From assembly GCA_003104975.1 (NCBI GenBank), contig PQAM01000006.1:97850-161849 (forward strand): a stretch of 64,000 nt of DNA, written 5' to 3'. The notes under the pieces are model-generated. The model saw only the letters and a list, made by a program, of their open reading frames with translations, had not been told where the DNA came from and ran no database searches. The stretch is from Candidatus Methylomirabilota bacterium. Lineage in GTDB: Bacteria; Methylomirabilota; Methylomirabilia; Methylomirabilales; Methylomirabilaceae. A program made the translations under genes and the position numbers. Below, piece after piece: positions 36,472 through 51,082 of the stretch (the stretch's first letter is position 1; each line of letters begins with the position of its first letter).

Positions 36472-36499
36472 AGCTGTCAGCTATCAGCTAACAGCTTCC
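36472..36499. repeat. 7-base repeat array at the selA stop codon
   Basis: Four consecutive 7-mers (AGCTGTC, AGCTATC, AGCTAAC, AGCTTCC) span the last codons and stop of selA and run into the selA-tmk spacer. The unit differs from the ones in nrdJ, holB and phoR but has the same period. Confidence 0.6.
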
Positions 36500-37920
36500 T
36501 TTGAAAATGCGACCGAGGCCACCAACCCGGCCAGTGTGTCCAGCTCATCAGCCAGAACGGTGCGGGGATCCAGGATAACCCGGTCGTCCTTGATCCGGAC
36601 CATGACCGGTGGGTCGGTCCGACGCAGGCGCTCTTCCAACGCCGCAGCCGTCAGACGGACGCCCCGTACGGCCACCAGTCGCGTCGGGATCGCCTCGAGG
36701 GGCAGCGCGCCGCCGCCGACCTCCGAACTCCCCTCGATGACAGAGACATCAAGGTGACCAGACGAGACTGCGGCAATTCGATCATGTAGATACACGGCCC
36801 GACGCTCGACCTCCTGAAGCGGCATGACAAGCGCCCGGAGCACCGGTACGTGGGCCGCAGCCTGCCCCTCATCACAGTACAGGCGCAACGTCGCCTCCAG
36901 TGCGGCCAGTGAGAGCTTGTCGATCCGGACGACGCGCGCCAGCGGATTGCGGCGCAGCCGTTCGACCAGCCGTCGCTTCCCCACGACCAGGCCGGCCTGC
37001 GGCCCACCCAGCAGCTTATCGCCGCTAAAGGTCACCAGATCGGCTCCGCCCCGGATGCTCTCCGAGGGCATCGGCTCCTTCGAAAAGCCGAGCGCCGACA
37101 GATCGATCAGGGCGCCGCTCCCGACATCCTCCACCACCGGCAGGCCGATCTTTTCGCCCAGGGCGGCCAACTCGGCCACCGGCACCTGGTTGGTAAACCC
37201 CTGGATGCGGAAGTTGCTGGTGTGCACCTTCAGAAGCATCGCGCTCGCCGGGCCGACAGCCTCTTCGTAATCCCGCAAATAGGTCCGATTGGTCGTCCCG
37301 ACCTCCCGCAGGATCCCTCCCGCGCGGCGCATCACATCGGGAATCCGGAATGAGTCGCCGATCTCCACCAGCTCCCCGCGCGAGACGATGACCTCCCGTC
37401 CATCGGCCAGCGTATTAATGGTCAGCAGGACAGCCGCGGCGTTATTGTTCACCGCGAGTGCCGCCTCGGCCCCGGTCAGACGGCACAAGAGCCCCGCTAC
37501 GTGATCCTGCCTGGACCCCCGGTCACCCCGGTCAAGGTCGTACTCCAGATTCGAGTACTCCCGTGCCACCTCGACTATACGTTCAACGGCCACCTCGGCG
37601 AGCGGGGCGCGACCAAGGTTGGTATGGATGACCACGCCGGTGGCGTTCATAACGCGCCGCAGGGTCGGTCCGTTCAACCGTTGCGCGATCCGCCGGACCT
37701 CGGCTGCCAGTGCGGCATTGGACGGCAGATCGACGGCCCCGGCACCGGACTGCGCGTCGGCGATCATCCGCCGCCGACACTGAAGCGTCTCTCGGATCGC
37801 CTCAACGACCGTCCAGCGCGGCAGCGTCTGCGTCAACTCCCGGATCGACGGCTTCTGCAACAGCTCATCCACCGAGGGGAGTTGCCTAAGCTGGAGTCTG
37901 GTCCCACTATCTACAGGCAC
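36484..37920 (-). CDS. selA: L-seryl-tRNA(Sec) selenium transferase
   Basis: This PLP enzyme converts Ser-tRNA(Sec) to selenocysteinyl-tRNA(Sec) using selenophosphate. SelA family motifs are clear: RQLPSVDELL at the N-terminus, RVMNATGVVIHTNLGRAPLA, NNNAAAVLL, SRGELVEIGDSFRIPDVM, EVGTTNRTYLRDY, KVHTSNFRIQGFT and the PLP lysine in VTFSGDKLLGGPQAG. The GTG at 37920 has GGAAAG upstream and is preferred; a TTG at 37932 is possible. Its presence shows the organism makes selenocysteine, which supports reading the TGA in fwdB at 48700-48702 as Sec. selB, selC and selD are not in this window. Confidence 0.96.
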   Translation of the reverse strand: MPVDSGTRLQLRQLPSVDELLQKPSIRELTQTLPRWTVVEAIRETLQCRRRMIADAQSGAGAVDLPSNAALAAEVRRIAQRLNGPTLRRVMNATGVVIHTNLGRAPLAEVAVERIVEVAREYSNLEYDLDRGDRGSRQDHVAGLLCRLTGAEAALAVNNNAAAVLLTINTLADGREVIVSRGELVEIGDSFRIPDVMRRAGGILREVGTTNRTYLRDYEEAVGPASAMLLKVHTSNFRIQGFTNQVPVAELAALGEKIGLPVVEDVGSGALIDLSALGFSKEPMPSESIRGGADLVTFSGDKLLGGPQAGLVVGKRRLVERLRRNPLARVVRIDKLSLAALEATLRLYCDEGQAAAHVPVLRALVMPLQEVERRAVYLHDRIAAVSSGHLDVSVIEGSSEVGGGALPLEAIPTRLVAVRGVRLTAAALEERLRRTDPPVMVRIKDDRVILDPRTVLADELDTLAGLVASVAFSKEAVS

Positions 37921-38050
37921 TCTTCTTTCCAATCGACAATTGACACCGGAAGGCGCTGGCGGATGCCTACGTTATTGTCAGGCTATCACACTTACCCGCC
38001 TGATTCAACCCCGCGTGGGGGCAGAGTAAGCTCGACTCTGGTACTTGAAT

Positions 38051-40611: not shown

Positions 40612-41109
40612 TCAGACTCCGCCCCCATTTTCACCAGGTCGATGATAGACTCCGCTCTTTCCCCCCGTCTTTCCGACCAGCCGGATGGCGCCGATGACCA
40701 TCTCCTTGTCTACCGCCTTGCACATGTCATAGACGGTCAAGGCCGCCATCGCCACGGCCATCAGGGCCTCCATTTCTGCCCCGGTTCGCCCGGTGACCTT
40801 GATTCGTGATTCGATGTCCAGGCGCCCCGCCGTCTCGACGGGTGTAAACTCTACTTCAGCACTGGAAAGCAGGAGGGGATGACAGAGGGGAATGAGGTCG
40901 GGTACGCGTTTTGCCGCCATCAGCCCGGCGAGCCTGGCAGCGGCCAGGACATCGCCCTTTGAGACCCTCCCCTTCGCAATCAGACGAAGGGTCTCGGGCT
41001 GCATGGTGACGGTGCCCCTGGCCACAGCCTCTCGCCTGGTTTCATCTTTCTCACTGATATCGACCATACGGGCTTGGCCGCGTCGGTCGACGTGAGTCAG
41101 CCGTTTCAT
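40612..41109 (-). CDS. moaC: Cyclic pyranopterin monophosphate synthase
   Basis: MoaC converts the MoaA product to cyclic pyranopterin monophosphate, the first stable intermediate of molybdopterin synthesis. The 165-residue protein shows MVDISEKDETRREAVARG, the LIPLCHPLLLSS motif, KVTGRTGAEMEALMAVAMAALTVYDMCKAVDK and IGAIRLVGKTGGKSG. The start overlaps the stop of the DUF465 gene. Cofactor synthesis fits the neighbouring Mo/W uptake genes and the molybdopterin enzyme FwdBD. Confidence 0.96.
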   Translation of the reverse strand: MKRLTHVDRRGQARMVDISEKDETRREAVARGTVTMQPETLRLIAKGRVSKGDVLAAARLAGLMAAKRVPDLIPLCHPLLLSSAEVEFTPVETAGRLDIESRIKVTGRTGAEMEALMAVAMAALTVYDMCKAVDKEMVIGAIRLVGKTGGKSGVYHRPGENGGGV

Positions 41110-41564: not shown

Positions 41565-42656
41565 TTAAACACACTGAATGACATGGGGGGCGGTCGCTTT
41601 GAATGCGGCAATCACCTCGGCCCCGTCCTCCAGGTCGAGTTGCTCCCACGACTGTCGGGTCACCATCGCGACGATCGGAACGCCACAGTCGATCGTTACC
41701 CGGTAAGCAGGGCCGGCTGGCAGGTGCCGGACTACCGTACCGTGAAGCTGATTCCGCGCGCTGGAGGCGGGTGCTATCGCCGTCCGAGGAGACAGCGTAA
41801 TCTCTTCCGGCCGCAGGCAGATCAGGACTCGCTCGCCAGGCATCACTGGCGCAGCAACTTCCAGGGTCCACCCTGACACCTGTATGGTGGCGAGCCCAAG
41901 GGTTACGCGCTGTACATGGCCGCGAAGGATCGTCTCAATACCGACGAACCGGGCAACCTGCTCGTTGACCGGCTCGGTAAAGACCCGCTCGGGGGCGCCG
42001 ATCTGAAGCACCTGCCCCCCCATCATCACCCCTACCCGATCGCCGAGCACGAGCGCCTCATTTCGATCGTGGGTCACAAAGATCGTGGTGATCCGCCGCT
42101 TGTCGAGAATCGTCTTAAGGTCGAGCAACAGCGCCTCGCGAGTCGGCGCATCCAAGGCGGCGAACGGCTCATCCAATAGGAACACCTCCGGATCGAGGAC
42201 CATGGCCCGCGCCAGACTTACCCGTTGAGCCTCGCCGCCCGAGAGGGTTCGCGTCCGCCGTCTCGCCAGATGCCCGATGTTGAAGGTTGCCATACCATCA
42301 GCCACGCGCCTATTGACCTCAGCCGCATCGACGCGCCGCAATCTCAGCCCCAGCGCGACATTGGCCTCTACGGTTCCGTCGGTCAACAACGGCTCCTGAA
42401 AGACGCTGGCCATCCGGCGACGGTCGCTCAGTAGATTGTGGTACGGCCGGATCGATCGCCCCGCGAAGACGACGCACCCTTCGGTGGGCTGCTCCAGCAG
42501 TCCAAGGATGCGAAGGAGGGTCGATTTGCCGGCCCCGTTGGGACCGATGACCGCTAACGTCTCGCCCTCCGGGATGTCCAGTGACGGCACATCCAGGACC
42601 ACCCTGCCGTCATATGTGACTTTGATCGTGTCGAGCCGGAGGATCGGATCGTTCAT
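41565..42656 (-). CDS. tupC: Tungstate-type ABC transporter ATP-binding protein
   Basis: This 363-residue ATPase has Walker A VIGPNGAGKSTLL (~36-48), Q-loop SVFQEPLL, signature LSGGEAQRVSLARAM, Walker B VFLLDEPFAAL and H-loop FVTHD. A C-terminal TOBE region follows (RNQLHGTVVRHLPAGPAYRVTIDCGVPIVAMVT). It overlaps the permease stop by ATGA. Pairing with the TupB-like permease and a TupA-like protein at 49597 supports tungstate or molybdate as substrate. The frame open to 43067 is a shadow over the permease gene. Confidence 0.88.
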   Translation of the reverse strand: MNDPILRLDTIKVTYDGRVVLDVPSLDIPEGETLAVIGPNGAGKSTLLRILGLLEQPTEGCVVFAGRSIRPYHNLLSDRRRMASVFQEPLLTDGTVEANVALGLRLRRVDAAEVNRRVADGMATFNIGHLARRRTRTLSGGEAQRVSLARAMVLDPEVFLLDEPFAALDAPTREALLLDLKTILDKRRITTIFVTHDRNEALVLGDRVGVMMGGQVLQIGAPERVFTEPVNEQVARFVGIETILRGHVQRVTLGLATIQVSGWTLEVAAPVMPGERVLICLRPEEITLSPRTAIAPASSARNQLHGTVVRHLPAGPAYRVTIDCGVPIVAMVTRQSWEQLDLEDGAEVIAAFKATAPHVIQCV

Positions 42657-43351
42657 GATATCCGCCCCCGTTGCTGAATCCAGGTGAGGGTCACGTTCAC
42701 GGCAAAGGTCAGCAGCAGCAACAGCAGACTGAGCGCGATTGCCATATCGAAATTTCCTTTGCCGGTTTCGAGGACGGTGGCGGTCGTCAGTACCCGCGTC
42801 TGCCGGTAGATGTTGCCGCCTACCATCATGGAGGCCCCGATCTCCGAGATGACCGCGCCGAAGCCGGCCATCAGCGCGGCTAGGAGCGGCAGTCGCGCCT
42901 CTTTGAGGAGCAGGTAGACGACCTGAATCCTCGACGCGCCGAGTCCGATAAGCTGCAGATGCAGTCGAGGGTTGAGCTGCTGAACGGCAGCGATGGTGAG
43001 GCCGGTCACCACCGGGGCGGCAATGACGAGCTGTGCGAGCACCATCGCCGTGGGCGTATAGAGCCACTCCAGGAAGCCAAGCGGTCCACTGCGCCAGAGC
43101 ATAATACTGACGAAAAGGCCGACCACAACCGGCGGCACGCCCATCCCGGTATTGACCAGGCTGATGGCGATGCGGCGCCCTGGAAAGCGGCTTAAGGCCA
43201 GGACGACGCCGAACGGAATACCGATCAGCAGGCTGAGCAGGGTTGCGCCACCCGAGACCTGCAGCGACAGCAGCATGATCCGCAGCACCTCCGGATCGCC
43301 GCGCAGCAGCAGCAGGATCGCCTGCTTCATACCTTGCCAGATCAGTTCCAT
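42653..43351 (-). CDS. tupB: Tungstate-type ABC transporter permease
   Basis: The 232-residue inner-membrane permease has about five or six helices. The permease signature is visible as LQLIGLGASRIQVVYLLLKEARLPLLAALMAGFGAVISEIGASMMVGGNI, with the GNI stretch typical of TupB rather than ModB. It precedes the ATPase gene with an ATGA overlap. The cognate binding protein is not adjacent but lies 6 kb upstream on the same strand, so the tup genes are split around fwdDB, the porin and modABC. Confidence 0.87.
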   Translation of the reverse strand: MELIWQGMKQAILLLLRGDPEVLRIMLLSLQVSGGATLLSLLIGIPFGVVLALSRFPGRRIAISLVNTGMGVPPVVVGLFVSIMLWRSGPLGFLEWLYTPTAMVLAQLVIAAPVVTGLTIAAVQQLNPRLHLQLIGLGASRIQVVYLLLKEARLPLLAALMAGFGAVISEIGASMMVGGNIYRQTRVLTTATVLETGKGNFDMAIALSLLLLLLTFAVNVTLTWIQQRGRIS

Positions 43352-43495: not shown

Positions 43496-44590
43496 TCAGT
43501 CGTCTGGCTGGAGCAGGCGCAGACGGTCCGGGGGCAACGACACCCACACCTCTTTCCCCACATACAGCGACATCAGGTCGTGCAGTCGGCTTCGAACCTG
43601 AATTTCCAGATCATACTTTCCCCGGTTGTCTCCGTCGGCAAGACCGACAAAGAGCAGGTAATCCAGGCCGCGCCCGAGTTCGTGGACGATCCGGCCGCGC
43701 AGAAGATTATCCCGCCGGCCCACCCGGTCCGGCCACACCAGCCTGACATCCTCGGGTCGGATACAGAACTCCACCTCCCCAGGCGCCATCGGCTCCAAAC
43801 CGTGGACCCGCAGATGATGCCCTCGCCAGACGATGTCCCAGAGGCCGTCCGGGTCGACACACGCCACGCCTCGCAGGATATTCTTGGCGCCCGTATGCTC
43901 GGCGACGCGCCGACTCTGCGGTCGATGGAGCACCTCGTCCCGGGTTCCTGTCTGGAGCACCGTGCCGCCGTCGATGATGGCGATGGTCGACGCCATAAGA
44001 TAGGCCTCTTGCAGATCATGGGTCACCAGCAGAACCGTCCCCTTATAGTCGGCGAGCATCTGAAGCAGCTCCTGGCGAAGGGTTTCGCGAACGGCCGGAT
44101 CGAGGGCGGAAAAGGGCTCGTCCAGCAGCAGGATCTCCGGATGCCCGATCAGGGCGCGTCCCAGCGCAACCCGTTGTCGCTGTCCGCCAGAAAGCTGATT
44201 CGGGTAGTGCTGCGCAAACGCCGCCAGCCGCAGAAGATGCAGCATCTCGTTGACCCGATCGGCCGCTTTATTCTGAGGCGTCCCTCGCGGTAATCCGAAC
44301 AAGAGATTCCCCGATACCGTCTTATGCGGGAATAGCGCATATTCCTGGAAGACCAGACCCACACGTCGAAGGTGCGGCGCCAGATCAATGCCGGCGCTGC
44401 CGTCAAAGACGGTCCGGCCATTGATACGAATGGTTCCGGAGGTCGGCCTGATCAGACCGGCGATGGCGAGCAGCGTCAGACTCTTGCCCGAGCCGGACGG
44501 GCCGTACAAGGCGGCGATCTCATCACCGACCGTCAGTTGCGTCCGGAGGTGAAACCCGGAGAGCCGCCTGTCGAGCGTAACCTCCAGCAT
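43496..44590 (-). CDS. modC: Molybdate ABC transporter ATP-binding protein
   Basis: This 364-residue ATPase follows modB directly. Walker A is ALYGPSGSGKSLTLLAI, the Q-loop region LVFQEYALFPHKTV, signature LSGGQRQRVALGRAL, Walker B ILLLDEPFSALD and H-loop LVTHDLQEA. The C-terminal domain carries a TOBE/Mop-like oxyanion-binding region (TGAKNILRGVA ... FCIRPEDVRLV). Its start overlaps the modB stop by one base. It energises molybdate import. Confidence 0.92.
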   Translation of the reverse strand: MLEVTLDRRLSGFHLRTQLTVGDEIAALYGPSGSGKSLTLLAIAGLIRPTSGTIRINGRTVFDGSAGIDLAPHLRRVGLVFQEYALFPHKTVSGNLLFGLPRGTPQNKAADRVNEMLHLLRLAAFAQHYPNQLSGGQRQRVALGRALIGHPEILLLDEPFSALDPAVRETLRQELLQMLADYKGTVLLVTHDLQEAYLMASTIAIIDGGTVLQTGTRDEVLHRPQSRRVAEHTGAKNILRGVACVDPDGLWDIVWRGHHLRVHGLEPMAPGEVEFCIRPEDVRLVWPDRVGRRDNLLRGRIVHELGRGLDYLLFVGLADGDNRGKYDLEIQVRSRLHDLMSLYVGKEVWVSLPPDRLRLLQPDD

Positions 44591-45252
44591 CAGTATTTGA
44601 CCTTGGTCATCCGTCCGACCAACGTAAGAATCATCAACACCACGGCCGTCACCAGGATCGACAGGGCATTCGCCTCCTGCGGCTGATTGGCCTGAACCGC
44701 ATCATAGATCGCCAGGGCGAGCGTCTGGGTTTTCCCCGGGATGTTCCCGGCAATCATCAGTGTAATTCCGAACTCCCCCATGGCCCTGGCGAATGCCAGA
44801 ATCGATCCGGCCAAGATGCCCCTCCAGGCGAGCGGCAAGGTGATCGTGCACAGGACGATCAGAATAGGCTTGAACGTCCGACCGGCGTCTTCGATCCGAC
44901 GATCAATCCCTTCAAACGCCCCCTGGGCCGCCTTGATAAATAGCGGTAGCGCCGCGATGGTCGACGCGAGCACCGCGGCCTTCCAGGTAAAGATGAGGCC
45001 GATATTCAGTCCGTACTCCAGAAATCGCCCCAGCAATCCGTGACGGCCGATCAGCCATAGCAGGTAATAGCCGGTCACGGTCGGCGGCAGGATCAGCGGA
45101 ATCACCACGATCGATTCCAGGAGTGCCCGACCGGGAAATCGACCTCGGGCCAACAGCCAGGCGATTGGCGTGCCGATGAGTAGCGTCACCACCGTCGCCA
45201 TGCCGGCGATCTTCAACGATAGGAGCAAAGGTGACAGCGGAATGTGTGTCAT
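44590..45252 (-). CDS. modB: Molybdate ABC transporter permease
   Basis: The 220-residue inner-membrane permease shows the ModB pattern: LIGTPIAWLLARGRFPGRALLESIVVIPLILPPTVTGYYLL, then AAQGAFEGIDRRIEDAGRTF and the EAA-like loop leading into LPLAWRGILAGSILAFARAMGEFGITLMIAGNIPGKTQTL. It lies between modA (48-base gap) and modC. Confidence 0.93.
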   Translation of the reverse strand: MTHIPLSPLLLSLKIAGMATVVTLLIGTPIAWLLARGRFPGRALLESIVVIPLILPPTVTGYYLLWLIGRHGLLGRFLEYGLNIGLIFTWKAAVLASTIAALPLFIKAAQGAFEGIDRRIEDAGRTFKPILIVLCTITLPLAWRGILAGSILAFARAMGEFGITLMIAGNIPGKTQTLALAIYDAVQANQPQEANALSILVTAVVLMILTLVGRMTKVKY

Positions 45253-45299: not shown

Positions 45300-46112
45300 T
45301 CAGCGAGCCGCACCCTTCGGCGGCGGCAGGAATCCGTGGGCTTTCAGAATCTGTTGTCCGACCTCGCTCACAGCCAGGTCGACGAACGCGCTGGCGAGAG
45401 CGGGCTGGGTTGAGGCACTGATCGCACTGATCGGATACAGGACAGGCGGATACCTCCCCTCCGGCGCCACGGCGACGACGCGAACCGCTTCACCGGCGCT
45501 CTGCGCGTCAGTGGCATACACCAGGGCGGCGTCGACCTCGCCTCGCGCGACGTAGGCCAGAGCCTGACGCACATTCTCGGTGAGGATCAGCTTTGGTTGC
45601 AGGGTATCCCACAGCCCCAGGCTCGTCAAGATCGCCCGGGCGTACGCACCTGCTGGAACGGTACGCGGATTACCGATGGCGATCAGCCTGACCTCCGGTT
45701 TGGTCAGATCGGTGAAGGCGTGAAGAGATGGCTTGAGGGCCGCGTGGGTGATGAGGACAACCACGTTGACGGCCAGGATACGTCGGGTGTTCGGAAGGAT
45801 GAGGCTCTTCGCCTCAAGCTCGTCCATCTGTTTCGGCGCGGCGGACACATACACATCCACGGGGGCGCCCTGTTCGATCTGCTGCTGCAAGACACCGGAC
45901 GCGCCGAAGTTGAAAACCACCTTCAAGTCCGGATGTTGCTGTTCAAACCGCGCACCGATTTCCTGTAAAGGCTCCTTTAGGCTGATCGCCGCCGACACCA
46001 GCAGTTCGGCGCCCGATGCCGCGGATACGCCGGTGAGCCATGCGACAACCACCAGAACGCCCAGCATCCGATCCAATCTCCGTGGAACCATCTCTCGATG
46101 ACACCGTAGCAT
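45300..46112 (-). CDS. modA: Periplasmic molybdate-binding protein
   Basis: This 270-residue protein has a signal peptide (MLGVLVVVAWLTGVSAASGA) and the ModA-type start of the mature chain (ELLVSAAISLKEPLQEIGARFEQQHPDLKVVFNFGASGVLQQQIEQGAPVDVYVSA), in which serines and the alanine-rich loop bind the oxyanion. GNPRTVPAGAYAR and DAALVYATDA are further family signatures. ATG 46091 would also give a good signal peptide. It captures molybdate or tungstate for ModBC. Confidence 0.93.
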   Translation of the reverse strand: MLRCHREMVPRRLDRMLGVLVVVAWLTGVSAASGAELLVSAAISLKEPLQEIGARFEQQHPDLKVVFNFGASGVLQQQIEQGAPVDVYVSAAPKQMDELEAKSLILPNTRRILAVNVVVLITHAALKPSLHAFTDLTKPEVRLIAIGNPRTVPAGAYARAILTSLGLWDTLQPKLILTENVRQALAYVARGEVDAALVYATDAQSAGEAVRVVAVAPEGRYPPVLYPISAISASTQPALASAFVDLAVSEVGQQILKAHGFLPPPKGAAR

Positions 46113-46210: not shown

Positions 46211-47725
46211 TTAGAACTGAACCTGCAACTCGGCGATCCCTTCATGCGCGTTGCCCCCCGCGCTATTGCTTATCCCAACCACATTCCGACCCGGACTGAG
46301 GTCGGCAACAACGTAGTTGCCTCGCAGCCGGACGTTGGGATTGACATACCAGGTCAGGCCGATGGTGCCTGAGCGCATCTCCAACGGGATCTCGTTTGTG
46401 GCCGAGTCGGGAGAAGTAAACGCGCCCTTATTGTCATCGATACGAAAATGCTCATAGCGGCCGGTGACCAGCAGACCCTTCAGCTTGTTGCCGAAGACCC
46501 AGTAGCCGATCGACCCATACCCGCCCTGCATGATGAGGTTGTCGAGGTTCTCGCCGCCGGCGCCCAAACCGTCACGCTCCTGGGAGGCGTAGAGGTATTC
46601 ACCCTTGAGGATAAACGGATACAGGTCGAAGACGATGTCGCCCCCGCCGGTGACCCGATTGCCGTTGATCCGGAAACCGTTCTGAGTGCCGCCGACCCCG
46701 TTGCCGGCCAGCGTGACGCCGGTCGGACCGATCGGGTTAAAGCGATGAAACGAGGTGCCACCAATAGGTCTTGTGACGCCGTTGTTATCGGTCGCGCCGT
46801 TGCCTCTCACTGTTCGAAAGGTGCGGTGATCGGCATTCATACCGATAGTGAGATTCCCGAACGGCGTAGGTGGCGAAACGGTCAATCGACCGGTGAACTC
46901 CTTATCACCGTCGTTATCGATACCGCCTGGGCACTGATCGACCCGGCCGCAGCCGTTATAGATCCCCACGCCATAAAAGACCGGCATGGCAGCGAGTTGC
47001 AGATTGCCTTCGATGGTGGCACCAACCTCCTGGCCTGGAGCCAGCGCCCTGGTGACGACCGCCCGTTCGGCGAAATCTAGATCCCGAGCGGAGGTGATTT
47101 CTTCAAGACCGAATCGGGGCTTGCGCTGCCCAACAAACGCCTTGGCCCAGGGGGCATAGGTGTAGCTGAGCCAGCCCTGTTGGAGCCGCGTACCCGTAGA
47201 ACCGCCCGCAATCTCCGGCTCGATGTAGAAGCCATAGTCGTTGAAGACCTGGCCCGTCACGAGGAGGCGGGTACGGCGCATCCGAAATGTACTCGGGTCG
47301 TGCCGCGCGAGCCCCGCTGCCGTCACATCCTGGCCATCAACGATCCCTGGGAAATCTTCTTCCTGTCGCGCCCCTTCGACTTGCATCCAGGTCTGCGTGT
47401 AGCCGCTTATGCTCAGCTTAAACTGCCCATCGGCAGACTTCAGGAAGAACCCCTTCCCAGGTTCATATCCGGTATTGAGAGACGAGGCCGCGGCCTCGGC
47501 GGCCTTCTTCTCCACCTCCATCACGCGCCTAGTCATCTCATTCTGTTGCGTGGCCCGTTCCTGACGCAATTGCTGCAACTCCTGTTGCAACCGCCGCAGC
47601 GACTGTTGCTGCGTCTTGTACGTCTGTTCCAGCTCTGTCAGCTTGTCGGCCCACGCCCCAACGGGGGCGAGCAGCAGGGCGCTACCCAGGACGACACCAC
47701 GAACCCACCACCCTCTTGACGTCAT
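46211..47725 (-). CDS. OprP/OprO-like outer-membrane porin
   Basis: The 504-residue protein has a signal peptide (residues ~1-26), an N-terminal coiled coil (KLTELEQTYKTQQQSLRRLQQELQQLRQERATQQNEMTRRV) and a beta barrel of the phosphate-selective porin family, ending in the terminal phenylalanine needed for outer-membrane insertion (ELQVQF). Family stretches include FRMRRTRLLVTGQVF and YEPGKGFFLKSADGQFKLSISGYTQ. OprP-type pores select oxyanions. Placed between fwdB and modABC, it could admit molybdate or tungstate; that role is inferred from position only. Confidence 0.85.
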   Translation of the reverse strand: MTSRGWWVRGVVLGSALLLAPVGAWADKLTELEQTYKTQQQSLRRLQQELQQLRQERATQQNEMTRRVMEVEKKAAEAAASSLNTGYEPGKGFFLKSADGQFKLSISGYTQTWMQVEGARQEEDFPGIVDGQDVTAAGLARHDPSTFRMRRTRLLVTGQVFNDYGFYIEPEIAGGSTGTRLQQGWLSYTYAPWAKAFVGQRKPRFGLEEITSARDLDFAERAVVTRALAPGQEVGATIEGNLQLAAMPVFYGVGIYNGCGRVDQCPGGIDNDGDKEFTGRLTVSPPTPFGNLTIGMNADHRTFRTVRGNGATDNNGVTRPIGGTSFHRFNPIGPTGVTLAGNGVGGTQNGFRINGNRVTGGGDIVFDLYPFILKGEYLYASQERDGLGAGGENLDNLIMQGGYGSIGYWVFGNKLKGLLVTGRYEHFRIDDNKGAFTSPDSATNEIPLEMRSGTIGLTWYVNPNVRLRGNYVVADLSPGRNVVGISNSAGGNAHEGIAELQVQF

Positions 47726-47751: not shown

Positions 47752-49071
47752 TTACTTGCCGTTTTTCATCGCAACCACCTTGGCGATGATCTGCTCCAGG
47801 ACCTCCCGATCCGTCGGCCAGGGCGAGTCGACCACCTTCTTCTGCTTGAGCGGGATGTGATCCATCCGGTACTGCATGCCGGCGGCCGCAACCGCCGACT
47901 GCGCCACGGGGATCACGACCGTGGCGACCTTTGTCGTATCGCTCTCCTTGGGATCGATCGCAATCAGCGGGATCGACCGAAGATGCTCCGAGGTCCTGCC
48001 GGGCAGATGACCGACCGCATCCGCAGCCATAATCATGGCGGCATCGACCTCTCTTCGCGCGACGAGATCGGCTACCGAGAACTCCCCGGGGTTGTAGCGC
48101 GGGTAGCCCCGGCTGAAATTGACGGCGAAGGGATAGCCGGTCTGCCAGGTCAGCACCTGCGCGATCCCCACGACATTGCCGTGACCCCGCATCGGCATAC
48201 CGGAAAACTTCGTGAATCGATTCAGTGCCTGGGCCAGTTTCAGGAGGGCGATGGCGTTCATCGTCTTGCCGCGACTCATGGTAATGCCCATCCCCCAGCA
48301 GATGATCCCAAATTTGCAATTCTTCAGTTTATCCGCAAGCGCCTTCCACTCCGCGACTGGGACCCCGCCCACTTCAGCGCGATTCAGCTCGTGCCCGTTC
48401 ACAAGGGCCGTCAGCGACGTTGCGACCTCATAATCGGTGTTCGGCGTGATCTGGAAGGCGATATCGGCCATTCTGGCCGAGGCGGTCGGCCGCACATCGA
48501 TCGTGATGATGGTTCGCCCCTTCTTCCCGGTTGGGGTAAAGAGTCCCTTGGCTGTCACGGCGTAGCGACTGGGGTGCCTGGGATGCGCTTCAGCCGGGTT
48601 CGATCCCCAGTACACGACGAGGTCCGCCCTATTCTGAATTTCCCCGACCGTACAGGTCGGAAGGCCAACTGTCTGCAGACCCTGCAGACCTGGGCCGTGT
48701 CAGACGGACGATGTATGATCGATATTGGCGCCGATCAGTTCAGCCAGTTGGATCGCCTTCTTTTGTGCGCTCAACTCCGTGGAATCCAGACCATAGATCA
48801 GCGGGTACTTGGCCGCGGCGAGGATCGCTGCGGCTGCGTCGATGCACTGCTCGATGGTCGCGGGTTGCCCATGAATCCTCGGTGTCGCCAAATCCGATTG
48901 GTAGTGCATATAGGTGGCCTTGCCCAGCGCGCAGGCATTCTTGACCGTCTTGATGCGCCCCTCCTCGACATGGATTTCCAGGTCGTCGCATGCGGTGCCG
49001 CAGAATGGGCAGACCACATCGGTAAAGATCTTCAACTGTTTCGCGGCTTGTACCGTGACATTTTCAGACAT
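47752..49071 (-). CDS. fwdB: Formylmethanofuran dehydrogenase subunit B, selenocysteine-containing
   Basis: This molybdopterin enzyme subunit catalyses CO2/formate interconversion in the formylmethanofuran reaction. The frame 49071-47752 is continuous (439 residues) if TGA at 48700-48702 is read as selenocysteine 124. Upstream of it lies the [4Fe-4S] motif CPFCGTAC...NACALG and the family stretch LIGANIDHTSSV. Directly downstream is HGPGLQGLQTVGLPTCTVGE, then YWGSNPAEAHPRHPSRY. In archaeal FwdB this position holds the Cys or Sec that ligates W or Mo. A SECIS hairpin follows the TGA. The start overlaps the fwdD stop. Conventional gene calling would split it at the TGA. Confidence 0.93.
48663..48702 (-). 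promoter_or_regulatory. Bacterial SECIS element with its UGA codon in fwdB
   Basis: On the minus strand TGA (48702-48700) is followed by CACGGCCCAG and then a perfect 8-base stem, GTCTGCAG / CTGCAGAC (48689-48682 and 48678-48671), closed by a GGT loop (48681-48679). An outer GGCC/GGCC pairing (48696-48693 with 48666-48663) is possible. Spacing and a G-rich loop match SelB-binding hairpins; the first bases after TGA resemble, from memory, those of E. coli fdhF. Confidence 0.9.
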
Positions 49072-49402
49072 AGCGCTCCACCTCCGCCTCGATACCCTTG
49101 TAGTCCGGCATCCCGGTCGCTTGGGTATCGGTGCCGATGATCGGATTAATGATCCGTCCCCACGGGATCAATACCATCCCCTGGGGGACATCGCCCTTGG
49201 CATACTTCAGGATGGCCGAACCGTGCGGCGTGGACAATCGAACTCGGTCGCCGTCCTGCAGGGCGAGTTCTTCGATGTCCTTGAGGTTCATTCGTACTGT
49301 TGAGATCTCCTCTATATACTCCTTCGACTCCTTTCCGACGTGCATGGCCTGGCCTTGCGTCAGTGTTCGCAAGGTGATCACCGTGAACCGCTTCTTCGTC
49401 AT
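49064..49402 (-). CDS. fwdD: Formylmethanofuran dehydrogenase subunit D
   Basis: This 112-residue protein is a stand-alone molybdopterin-dinucleotide-binding domain (FwdD type), which completes the cofactor pocket of FwdB. Visible signatures are FTVITLRTLTQGQAMHVGKESKEYIE, ELALQDGDRVRLSTPHGSAIL and PQGMVLIPWGRIINPIIGTDTQATGMPDYKGIEAEV. It overlaps fwdB by 8 bases. FwdA, FwdC and the small ferredoxin-like subunits are not in this window, so the complex must be completed elsewhere or be unusual. Confidence 0.93.
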   Translation of the reverse strand: MTKKRFTVITLRTLTQGQAMHVGKESKEYIEEISTVRMNLKDIEELALQDGDRVRLSTPHGSAILKYAKGDVPQGMVLIPWGRIINPIIGTDTQATGMPDYKGIEAEVERYV

Positions 49403-49517
49403 CTCACACACGCTCCTTGATGACGGTCGTACTCACGCTCGTCTTTCCCCTTGACAATCATCGGGGTCGGTGCGGAAATAGAACGGGCGTTGAGGCGGGC
49501 GACCGCTTCATCTCTCC

Positions 49518-49596: not shown

Positions 49597-50475
49597 TCAG
49601 CGTCCGATCTCCTCCTCCTGTCTGCCGGCATCCGGATAAAATAGCGGCTCGCCGAACTTCTCAACGCCAAACGTCTTGATGATCGCTTGAGTGTCAGCCG
49701 CGATGATAAAGTCCGCAAACGCCTTGCCGCCGGCAGCATTCACCTTGGGAAATCTGTCGGCATTCACCTCCATGACCGAGTAGATATTCAGGAGCGATGG
49801 GTCGCGCTCAATGAGAATCTCCAGAGCGAGGCGTTTTTTTAAGGCAAGGTAGGTGCCCCGGTCGGTGAGGGTATAGGCTCGCTTCTCCGTCGCAATCCCA
49901 AGGGTCTGCCCCATCCCCTGGCCTGTTTCCAGATACCAGTCGCTGACAGGTTCTTGTCCCGAAGCTTTCCATAGGCGTTTTTCAAGCTGATGGGTCCCCG
50001 AATTATCACCTCGAGAGACCCACGTCGCTTTTCGCTCCGCGATTCGACGGAGCGCTTCACTCGCCTTCTTCAGACTACGGATCTGAGCCGGATCCTCCTT
50101 CGGGCCGACGATAATGAAATCGTTGTGCATGACCAGGCGACGGTTGGTGAGTGTCCCCTCGGTCACATACCTCTTCTCGGCCTCCGGGGCGTGGACCAAT
50201 ACTACGTCTGCTTCGCCGCGACCGCCAAGAGCCAGCGCCTGGCCTGTTCCGACGGAGATCGTTTTCACGACGTAGCCGGTCTGTCGCTCAAACAATGGAA
50301 CCAAGACGTCAAGCAGCCCGGAATCCTGCGTACTGGTGGTGGTCGCCAGAATGACATTTTGACTTCCAGCCTGGACGACGCGGATTGGTGCCCCTTGTGC
50401 GGCGCCAAGTACCGCCAGACCCACGATTAGGTACTGAAGAACAGTTCTCAAGTATCTCTTACCCATGGTGCTCAT
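49597..50475 (-). CDS. tupA: Tungstate-binding periplasmic protein
   Basis: The 292-residue protein has an N-terminal signal segment (LQYLIVGLAVLGAAQGA) and the TupA hallmark ILATTTSTQDSGLLDVLVPLFE at the start of the mature chain, where Thr and Ser residues hold the oxyanion. DVVLVHAPEAEKRYV, WVSRGDNSGTHQLEKRLW and GIATEKRAYTLTDRGTYLAL are further family stretches. It follows mop by about 10 bases. The matching permease and ATPase are probably tupB and tupC at 41.6-43.4 kb. Confidence 0.94.
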   Translation of the reverse strand: MSTMGKRYLRTVLQYLIVGLAVLGAAQGAPIRVVQAGSQNVILATTTSTQDSGLLDVLVPLFERQTGYVVKTISVGTGQALALGGRGEADVVLVHAPEAEKRYVTEGTLTNRRLVMHNDFIIVGPKEDPAQIRSLKKASEALRRIAERKATWVSRGDNSGTHQLEKRLWKASGQEPVSDWYLETGQGMGQTLGIATEKRAYTLTDRGTYLALKKRLALEILIERDPSLLNIYSVMEVNADRFPKVNAAGGKAFADFIIAADTQAIIKTFGVEKFGEPLFYPDAGRQEEEIGR

Positions 50476-50484
50476 CGTCTCCCG

Positions 50485-50691
50485 CTACTCCTTGGCGATC
50501 ATGACCTCTGTGGCCTTGATGACGGCATAGACTTGGTCCCCAGCCTTCAGTTTCATCCGCTTGGCCGAGCCGCTGGTAATGGCCGAGACCAGTTCCTGAT
50601 CCCCCACCTTCACGACCACCTCGCTCATGACGGCTCCGATTTTCACCTTCTTAACGACGCCCGCCAACTGATTCCGCGCACTCATCTGCAT
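50485..50691 (-). CDS. mop: Molbindin-type Mop-domain protein
   Basis: This 68-residue protein is a single Mop domain (ARNQLAGVVKKVKIGAVMSEVVVKVGDQELVSAITSGSAKRMKLKAGDQVYAVIKATEVMIAKE). Such domains assemble into hexamers that bind molybdate or tungstate inside the cell, for storage or buffering. AGGAGG lies 8 bases before ATG 50691. It lies between modE and tupA. As the neighbouring ModE lacks Mop domains, this protein could be the oxyanion-sensing half acting in trans. Confidence 0.92.
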   Translation of the reverse strand: MQMSARNQLAGVVKKVKIGAVMSEVVVKVGDQELVSAITSGSAKRMKLKAGDQVYAVIKATEVMIAKE

Positions 50692-50743
50692 CCCCTCCAC
50701 CTCCTTCCTCATGCCCCGCTCTTGCTGTTCTCCCCGCCTTCGC

Positions 50744-51082
50744 TCAATACGAAAATAGTATCCGCGATTCTTTTTTGAGGGCGGCACGCAGCGCCTTCTG
50801 CAACCGCTTATAATCCCGTATGAGTTTACGTGCCTGCGGCGTGAGTCGCGTCCCGCCGCCGGCCGTTCCTCCATGGCTGATAATCAGAATCGGCACCTCG
50901 GCGTGTCGCTCCATCGTTTTCAGATACCCCCAGGCGCGTCGATAGGACCATCCGACCCGCTTCGCCGCATGCTGAATCGACCCAAGCTCATCGATGGCAT
51001 CGAGGAGCGCAATACCATGCTCTCCCATGATGAACTTGCCGTCCGCCTCCAGCCAGGTCTTCGACTTTACCTCAAGCTGCAT
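50744..51082 (-). CDS. modE: ModE-type regulator, DNA-binding domain only
   Basis: The 112-residue product matches the N-terminal LysR-like winged helix of ModE: ALLDAIDELGSIQHAAKRVGWSYRRAWGYLKTMERHAEVPILIISHGGTAGGGTRLTPQARKLIRDYKRL. The C-terminal Mop domains of E. coli ModE (total 262 residues) are absent. A palindrome overlapping its start region (51092-51117) suggests autoregulation. It is the first gene of the mop-tupA row and probably controls Mo/W uptake. Confidence 0.9.
   Translation of the reverse strand: MQLEVKSKTWLEADGKFIMGEHGIALLDAIDELGSIQHAAKRVGWSYRRAWGYLKTMERHAEVPILIISHGGTAGGGTRLTPQARKLIRDYKRLQKALRAALKKESRILFSY

What the first reader, a model, noticed from the sequence alone, without database searches (positions are those of the whole stretch)
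47752..49071. Bacterial formylmethanofuran dehydrogenase subunit B with selenocysteine
The two apparent fragments of fwdB share one reading frame interrupted only by TGA at 48700-48702. The codon sits exactly where FwdB enzymes carry the catalytic Cys or Sec, followed by HGP. The 28 codons after TGA are FwdB-like and contain no other stop. The N-terminal [4Fe-4S] motif (CPFCGTAC) is intact, unlike the non-redox FhcB of methylotrophs as generally described. This points to a redox-active, selenium- and W/Mo-dependent CO2/formate enzyme in a bacterium.
Basis: partly seen in the sequence, partly recalled or inferred. Interest (0 to 1): 0.95.

Follow-up and report, generated by a model that had tools for sequence, protein, structure and literature searches.

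The report
Bacterial selenocysteine formyl-methanofuran dehydrogenase subunit
In bacteria that appear to belong to the methane-oxidising Methylomirabilis group, a second gene for the CO2-handling subunit of formyl-methanofuran dehydrogenase has a TGA stop codon exactly at the metal-binding position, conserved in six genomes and likely read as selenocysteine, a form of this enzyme that the texts we read describe only from archaea.

Summary
Confirmed. The minus-strand gene 49071-47752 is one FwdB frame (TIGR03129, 533 bits) broken only by TGA at codon 124, aligned with Cys118 of the solved Methanothermobacter wolfeii FwdB. The genome appears to be NC10/Methylomirabilis. All six orthologues that span the site carry TGA; the Cys-type paralogues (14 genomes of the genus, in ours the fhc-cluster copy) carry Cys. 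The 28 codons after TGA evolve as protein (pN 0.02-0.05, pS 0.31-0.62). A hairpin after TGA places U17, G23 and U24 as in the E. coli fdhF SECIS. SelA is in the window; SelB, SelD and tRNA-Sec are in the genome and genus. fwdD lies upstream, amid tungstate/molybdate uptake genes. It is very likely a bacterial selenoprotein FwdB, and a tree nesting it among bacterial Cys-FwdBs points to an independent Cys-to-Sec gain. Weak points: in G032 the hairpin loses a central pair and does not fold; energy and synonymous-site tests are only suggestive; no protein data. The genome has one FwdA and only short matches to an archaeal polyferredoxin, so partners and electron acceptor are inferred: likely a Sec isoform of the B/D module of the Fhc/Fwd complex, or else a stand-alone formate dehydrogenase.

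The parts
47752..49071 (-). fwdB with in-frame TGA: FwdB-type catalytic subunit, 439 aa with Sec124; [4Fe-4S] ligands C21, C24, C28, C47
48700..48702 (-). recoded TGA, codon 124, aligned with Cys118 of 5t5i_B
48671..48689 (-). SECIS-like hairpin (nt 14-32 counted from U of UGA): 8-bp stem, GGU loop at nt 22-24
49064..49411 (-). fwdD-like small subunit (molybdopterin-dinucleotide binding); overlaps fwdB by 8 nt; its own stop codon is TGA
   Evidence: NF042908, 81 bits, below its cut-off of 175
49597..50475 (-). tupA-like tungstate-binding protein
   Evidence: NF041772, 218 bits, below its cut-off of 400
50485..50874 (-). TOBE-domain (molbindin-like) protein; the start codon of the listed ORF is probably too far upstream
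50744..51082 (-). ModE-like DNA-binding regulator
   Evidence: HTH_1; the orthologue in L050 hits TIGR00637 at 85.7 bits, below its cut-off of 98.5
46211..47725 (-). outer-membrane porin (Porin_O_P)
45300..46112 (-). modA molybdate-binding protein
   Evidence: TIGR01256, 203 bits, cut-off 62.5
44590..45252 (-). modB-like permease
   Evidence: name by position
43496..44590 (-). modC-like ATPase
   Evidence: name by position
42653..43351 (-). second oxyanion permease (tupB-like)
   Evidence: name by inference
41565..43067 (-). second ABC ATPase (tupC-like); ORF start probably too far upstream
   Evidence: name by inference
40612..41109 (-). moaC, molybdopterin synthesis
36484..37932 (-). selA, L-seryl-tRNA(Sec) selenium transferase
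   Evidence: (TIGR00474, 591 bits)

Best explanation
The gene is a bacterial FwdB whose codon 124 is TGA and is very likely translated as selenocysteine, which would bind the tungsten or molybdenum of the active site where other FwdBs use cysteine. Likely mechanism: SelB with Sec-tRNA(UCA) recognises the hairpin that starts about ten bases after UGA and inserts Sec. The product likely pairs with FwdD, whose gene overlaps its own, to make a Mo/W-bis-PGD site with one [4Fe-4S] cluster that interconverts CO2 and formate. Because the genome holds a single FwdA, next to the Cys copy, this B/D pair likely serves as an alternative, Se- and W/Mo-favoured catalytic module on the shared FwdA/FhcD/FwdC, oxidising the formyl group from methane-derived carbon to CO2. 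Shown: the frame, the conserved TGA, protein-level constraint across it, the Sec machinery genes, the ligand alignment, the gene order. Inferred: Sec insertion itself, the metal, the partner subunits, the direction of catalysis, the electron acceptor.
For: TGA in 6 of 6 orthologues spanning the site; Cys in the Cys-type copy of 14 of 14 genomes of the genus that have one, with TGC or TGT in the copies whose codon was printed. Codons 125-152: pN 0.016-0.049 against pS 0.309-0.618 in the 6 pairs computed. U17, G23 and U24 of the hairpin in all six; of 2134 TGA trinucleotides in the window only this one has 8 of 8 pairs in that register. SelA in window; SelB 15/15, SelD 15/15, tRNA-Sec over cut-off 13/15 genomes of the genus; tRNA-Sec with UCA anticodon in the own genome. 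U124 at the Cys118 position of 5t5i_B, R295/H297 at R288/H290. FwdD beside FwdB in 4 of 4 fetched orthologous loci that reach it, TupA in the same 4. One FwdA in the genome, in the cluster with the Cys copy.
Against: In G032 (L053) a G-to-U change at nt 18 breaks a central pair and the hairpin is not the minimum-energy fold (z 0.07). Synonymous-codon randomisation gives only 0.06-0.07 for four sequences, 0.39 for L050 and 0.86 for L053. Low synonymous variation in the hairpin (9 of 325 windows as low) is nearly matched by the Cys paralogue (28 of 370). U17 is paired in the predicted fold here, not bulged as in fdhF. Rfam gave no support. The nearest database relative, P0002, has neither Cys nor Sec. 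Only short ferredoxin-like matches to an archaeal polyferredoxin, so the electron acceptor is unknown. No protein, metal or activity data. In M. oxyfera a cluster that may be this one is reported as minor in expression (PMC6094997, section 16).
Confidence: 0.8

Rival explanations
1. The Sec-FwdB/FwdD pair works alone, or with an NAD- or quinone-linked partner, as a compact tungsten/selenium formate dehydrogenase, without FwdA or formyl-methanofuran.
For: The second locus holds only B and D; the single FwdA lies elsewhere. In the M. oxyfera-sized genome G025, fwdDB is followed by a NuoF-like protein and a formate dehydrogenase alpha subunit. The FwdB model resembles formate dehydrogenases in fold and FwdD corresponds to their fourth domain (PMC7331816, passages).
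Against: The protein falls inside the FwdB family, 66-71% identical to the Cys-type NC10 copies, not among FDHs. No FDH was seen directly downstream in the other loci that reach there: L051, L052, L053 and the window.
Confidence: 0.3
2. TGA is a true stop: the locus is a decaying gene or makes two separate polypeptides.
For: Mechanical ORF calling gives two ORFs, and database entries such as P0033, P0080, P0081 begin after the TGA.
Against: Same TGA in six genomes; the 28 codons after it have no start in the window and G032 yet stay protein-constrained between them (pN 0.033, pS 0.618); no other in-frame stop in any of the six; complete Sec machinery.
Confidence: 0.04
3. TGA is read as another amino acid or by untargeted read-through.
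For: TGA codons are occasionally suppressed (general knowledge).
Against: The position is Cys in 112 of the 113 listed database homologues that span it (the best 120 of 5066 hits were listed, 7 do not reach the site) and UGA in 11 archaeal FwdBs; fwdD, the gene directly upstream, ends in TGA; tRNA-Sec with UCA and SelA/B/D are present.
Confidence: 0.03
4. A Sec-FwdB acquired from archaea by gene transfer rather than gained from a bacterial Cys-FwdB.
For: Archaeal Sec-FwdBs exist, and bacterial FwdB as a family is held to come from archaea (PMC10100899, passages).
Against: In the 65-row tree the bacterial Sec clade sits among bacterial Cys rows (100/93) while the 8 archaeal Sec rows form a separate clade (100/100), used as outgroup. 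The archaeal SECIS lies outside the coding region (recalled), whereas here a hairpin follows UGA.
Confidence: 0.05

Closest known systems
Archaeal selenocysteine FwdB (Methanopyrus kandleri in the reviews; Methanocaldococcus and Methanothermococcus loci here)
   Same: Same family, same Sec position before HGP, same type of Fe-S motif.
   Different: Bacterial host; a hairpin follows UGA inside the gene; 40-49% identity; separate clade; no full-length relative of an archaeal polyferredoxin in the genome.
Bacterial Cys-FwdB: the NC10 Cys copies, and Hakuba actinobacteria (PMC7325909, passages)
   Same: Intact [4Fe-4S] motif; FwdD upstream in the four NC10 Cys loci examined; 66-71% identity for the NC10 copies of genus and order (one partly aligned copy, L036, 58%).
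   Different: Cys at the metal-ligand position; in the own genome encoded with FwdA, FhcD and FwdC.
FhcB of Methylorubrum extorquens (6s6y_B)
   Same: Homologous scaffold subunit of the formyltransferase/hydrolase complex.
   Different: 361 aa chain aligned only from query residue 67 on, E 4.8e-15; described as lacking Mo/W-bis-PGD (PMC10100899, Table 1 passage).
E. coli formate dehydrogenase H (fdhF) and its SECIS
   Same: UHGP motif, and U17/G23/U24 register of the hairpin.
   Different: Single large catalytic chain; bulged U17 (PMC8659212, passages), which is paired in the fold predicted here.

Membership tests
FwdB (formylmethanofuran dehydrogenase subunit B) | Full-length match to TIGR03129 over its cut-off | tested here: met
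   532.9 bits, cut-off 327.8, profile 1-421 of 421
FwdB (formylmethanofuran dehydrogenase subunit B) | Four N-terminal cysteines of the [4Fe-4S] cluster | tested here: met
   C21, C24, C28, C47 aligned with 5t5i_B and invariant in the 20-row alignment
FwdB (formylmethanofuran dehydrogenase subunit B) | Cys or Sec metal ligand at the Cys118 position | tested here: met
   TGA at codon 124; Sec insertion itself not shown
FwdB (formylmethanofuran dehydrogenase subunit B) | CO2 reduction / formyl-methanofuran oxidation | not testable with these tools
   no biochemistry
Complete archaeal-type Fwd complex (A, B, C, D and electron-transfer subunits encoded together) | fwdA, fwdC and polyferredoxin genes with fwdB and fwdD | tested here: not met
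   Only fwdD adjacent; the single FwdA is on another contig with the Cys copy; only short matches to an archaeal ORF with nine Fe-S motifs, taken as FwdF without a family test. So the subunit is filed as FwdB, the locus not as a complete Fwd operon.
Bacterial selenoprotein gene | In-frame TGA conserved in orthologues with Cys homologues | tested here: met
   6 of 6 with TGA; Cys paralogues
Bacterial selenoprotein gene | SECIS hairpin directly downstream | tested here: met
   8 of 8 pairs in register in 5 of 6 sequences; one mismatch and no stable fold in the sixth; energy tests weak
Bacterial selenoprotein gene | selA, selB, selC, selD in the genome | tested here: met
Methylotroph FhcB (cofactor-free scaffold) | Loss of Fe-S domain and metal ligand | tested here: not met
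   both present

The most novel reading that the evidence does not exclude
Methylomirabilis evolved, inside Bacteria and independently of methanogens, a selenium-dependent formyl-methanofuran dehydrogenase module (Sec-FwdB with FwdD) that swaps with the Cys module on one shared Fhc/Fwd complex according to W, Mo and Se supply, letting a methanotroph oxidise the formyl group straight to CO2 instead of only hydrolysing it to free formate.
Probability: 0.35. Interest if true: 0.85.

Novelty: new variant of a known kind. Interest (0 to 1): 0.66.

Why it matters
Formyl-methanofuran dehydrogenase is the CO2-fixing entry enzyme of methanogenesis, and the review passages read here tie its Sec form to archaea. 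A Sec form in NC10 bacteria, with a bacterial-type SECIS and W/Mo uptake genes beside it, would show the same residue gained again in another domain and under another insertion rule. It would also mean that carbon flow in nitrite-dependent methane oxidation may bypass free formate. The gene is split in two by ordinary ORF calling, so it is easily overlooked; that is now testable in existing enrichments.

Tried and rejected
Rfam at gathering score found no RNA in the window, and a permissive scan of 48600-48760 gave only 4 matches far below their gathering scores: Rfam gave no support for the hairpin. Synonymous-codon randomisation and the synonymous-variation test were weak. A scan of genome contigs (one genome for each of 84,980 named species) for the motif [.]D.T..[VI]UH[GA]P gave 17 stretches: 11 archaeal FwdBs and 6 bacterial stretches with no FwdB match, taken as chance. 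This does not show that bacteria outside NC10 lack it: the motif demands Thr two residues after Asp, and records near the window's genome may be left out (no NC10 copy appeared). The AlphaFold model (mean pLDDT 74, residues 121-140 around Sec under 50) finds 5t5i first but with TM about 0.6 and rmsd 11, so it adds little beyond sequence. Sequencing error, separate ORFs and stop reassignment were rejected for the reasons under the rivals.

Not in print, as far as searched: ten full-text searches, of which bear directly on Sec-FwdB in bacteria or NC10. Listings are capped (one search showed 20 of 54 papers). No listed title and no passage read describes one, but subscription papers, supplements and preprints were not searched. 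The groundwater selenoproteome study cited in PMC13188914 (a Methylomirabilota MAG with 63 predicted selenoproteins) may list it; that paper was not seen.

Full report
The observation. On the minus strand, 49071-48700 and 48615-47752 are pieces of one frame of 440 codons whose only internal stop is TGA at 48702-48700, codon 124. The read-through protein is FwdB by TIGR03129 (532.9 bits against a cut-off of 327.8). Its best solved relative is the tungsten FwdB 5t5i_B of Methanothermobacter wolfeii (E 4e-123). In that alignment codon 124 falls on residue 118, a Cys; R295 and H297 fall on R288 and H290; and the four N-terminal cysteines are kept. A passage in PMC7325909 calls Cys118 catalytic, and passages of PMC11656701 describe Cys or Sec as the W/Mo ligand.

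Where it comes from. The window lies in an assembly of 3,001,605 bases in 19 contigs, 99.99% complete. Several of the homologous proteins that bear names are called candidate division NC10 or Methylomirabilales. Genome G025 of the same genus is one contig of 2,752,854 bases, which fits the 2.75 Mb single contig of Ca. M. oxyfera, and G021, about 3.0 Mb in about 90 contigs, fits the 3.05 Mb in 90 contigs of Ca. M. lanthanidiphila in a table passage of PMC6094997.

Conservation. Among 95 genomes of the phylum, 17 have TIGR03129 matches over the cut-off. The own genome has two full copies: one without a stop, in a cluster with FwdA, FhcD, FwdC and Mch, and the window's. The window's copy has orthologues in G021, G025, G030, G032 and G034, and a C-terminal piece in G033 that stops at a contig end before the site; so 7 of the 15 genomes of the genus show it, while G022, 99% complete, has a single match, the Cys copy. 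In all six that span the site the codon is TGA. The Cys-type copy is found in 14 genomes of the genus (not in G026) and has Cys at the position, SSVCHAPS, in all 14; the codon was printed for seven genus copies and one of the order (six, two more) and is TGC or TGT. That these lie in fhc clusters was checked for the own genome only; FwdD stands directly upstream in the four Cys loci examined, L058, L025, L031 and L033. Three further copies, in G008, G010 and G023, have no Cys (AFYG) and look like cofactor-free FhcB.

Translation across the stop. In the window and G032 the first in-frame start lies 29 codons after TGA, in the other four 18. Over codons 125-152 the proportion of non-synonymous differences is 0.033-0.049 and of synonymous differences 0.526-0.618 for the window against each of the five others, and 0.016 against 0.309 for L050 against L052 (uncorrected Nei-Gojobori). 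The cleanest pair is window against G032, where none of these codons can be reached from a downstream start: 0.033 against 0.618. So a stretch that only read-through can reach evolves as protein.

The hairpin. Counting from U of UGA, nt 14-21 pair with nt 25-32 around a GGU loop. U17, G23 and U24, which PMC8659212 (passages) gives as the fixed bases of the E. coli fdhF SECIS, with U17 and G23 as SelB contacts, are at the same numbers in all six sequences and in fdhF. Of 2134 TGA trinucleotides on both strands of the window, only this one has all 8 pairs in that register, 7 others have 7 (the pairing rule was written after seeing the sequence, the register was taken from fdhF). Fold z-scores are -2.53 (window), -1.77 (L050), -3.45 (L052) and 0.07 (L053), with -1.22 for fdhF itself; L051 and L054 were not in that call. 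L053 has a mismatch at nt 18 and does not fold into the hairpin. Randomising synonymous codons gives 0.061, 0.072, 0.071, 0.070, 0.395 and 0.864 for window, L051, L052, L054, L050 and L053. Synonymous variation is low in the hairpin (9 of 325 windows as low) but nearly as low in the Cys paralogue (28 of 370). The SECIS is therefore convincing by position and contact bases, not by energy or covariation.

Machinery. SelA is in the window. SelB over the cut-off is in 15 of 15 genomes of the genus, SelD in 15 of 15 (each with an internal TGA of its own), and a tRNA-Sec match over the cut-off in 13 of 15, the two without being 80-81% complete. One of the 13, G031, rests only on the second, tRNA-like element described under things noticed, so 12 of 15 have the ordinary one. 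ARAGORN confirms tRNA-Sec with anticodon UCA in the own genome. TGA still ends genes here: fwdD, directly upstream, ends in TGA.

Origin. A tree of 65 rows (35 of the 120 listed database proteins, 22 rows from genomes of the phylum, 8 of the 11 archaeal Sec loci; rooted by me on the archaeal rows) puts the six Sec rows with P0002 at 100/100, inside a group of 31 rows otherwise Cys-type (100/93), with the archaeal Sec rows apart at 100/100. P0002 lies within the Sec clade (93/58, so not firmly) but has lost the ligand. The simplest reading is duplication of the Cys-type pair in NC10, then Cys to Sec. The scan of named genomes found Sec-FwdB only in archaea (11 of 17 stretches), with the limits told under Tried and rejected.

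Function. FwdD overlaps fwdB by 8 nt in the window and stands beside it in all four orthologous loci that reach it, L050-L053; TupA stands there too, with a ModE-like regulator in three (L050, L052, L053; L051 ends before it) and ModA in three (L050, L051, L052; not in the 3.6 kb held downstream in L053). In L052 the order continues through the second transporter and MoaC as in the window. In G025 the pair is followed by NuoF-like and formate dehydrogenase alpha genes, the latter with Cys; [quoted passage not shown] the equation is mine). The genome has one FwdA over the cut-off, in the cluster with the Cys copy, and only short matches to an archaeal ORF with nine Fe-S motifs that I take for FwdF. 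I therefore prefer a Sec isoform of the B/D module that shares FwdA and FwdC, and hold the stand-alone formate dehydrogenase as the main rival.

Known or new. Sec-FwdB in archaea is established: Table 1 of PMC13188914 lists the family among verified selenoproteins, and a passage there places FwdB in methanogenic archaea. Bacterial FwdBs are known: 149 bacterial representatives in PMC10100899, attributed to transfer from archaea (passages), and a Cys118 type in actinobacteria. The main text of PMC5029168 does not contain FwdB or formylmethanofuran. A bacterial Sec-FwdB was not found in the passages seen. Hence a new variant of a known kind.

Noticed in passing
L002 1501-1598 (-) = G000:C3:50105-50202; also L079 639-736, L080 627-724, L081 627-724: A second tRNA-Sec-like element with a UCA anticodon loop (RF01852, 54 bits; not called as a tRNA by ARAGORN in L002, L080 or L081, called with an unclear anticodon in L079) lies about 2.1-2.4 kb upstream of the Cys-type fwdB in G000, G031, G033 and G034 (95-98% identical to the own copy), not in the upstream stretches taken from G025 and G030. 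In G000 it lies beside an ORF whose PPKWHLGHTTWFFE motif recalls EgtB-like proteins (recalled, not searched). A possible second Sec tRNA.
   Followed up: partly
L075 5387-6676 (+): A euryarchaeal FwdB has a second in-frame TGA, at an Fe-S ligand position (VVCPF*GTLCDD), besides the catalytic one.
   Followed up: no
P0002 (metagenomic protein): Groups with the Sec clade but has no Cys or Sec: SVSDE with a three-residue deletion at the ligand position.
   Followed up: partly
L055 7803-9065, L056 7809-6532, L057 3217-2159: Three NC10 genomes (G008, G010, G023) carry, besides a Cys-type FwdB, a degenerate FwdB/FhcB with AFYG in place of CHAP.
   Followed up: no
L060, L061 (SelD loci): SelD in all 15 genomes of the genus has an internal TGA, so it is itself likely a selenoprotein.
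   Followed up: partly
L050 9197-12082 (+): The formate dehydrogenase next to Sec-FwdB in G025 has Cys (ARVCHTP) at its ligand motif: here the FwdB, not the FDH, is the likely selenoprotein.
   Followed up: no
L037, L045, L047, L049 and others: Lower-scoring TIGR03129 matches with one internal TGA in other families of the phylum, probably Sec formate dehydrogenases (guess, not examined).
   Followed up: no
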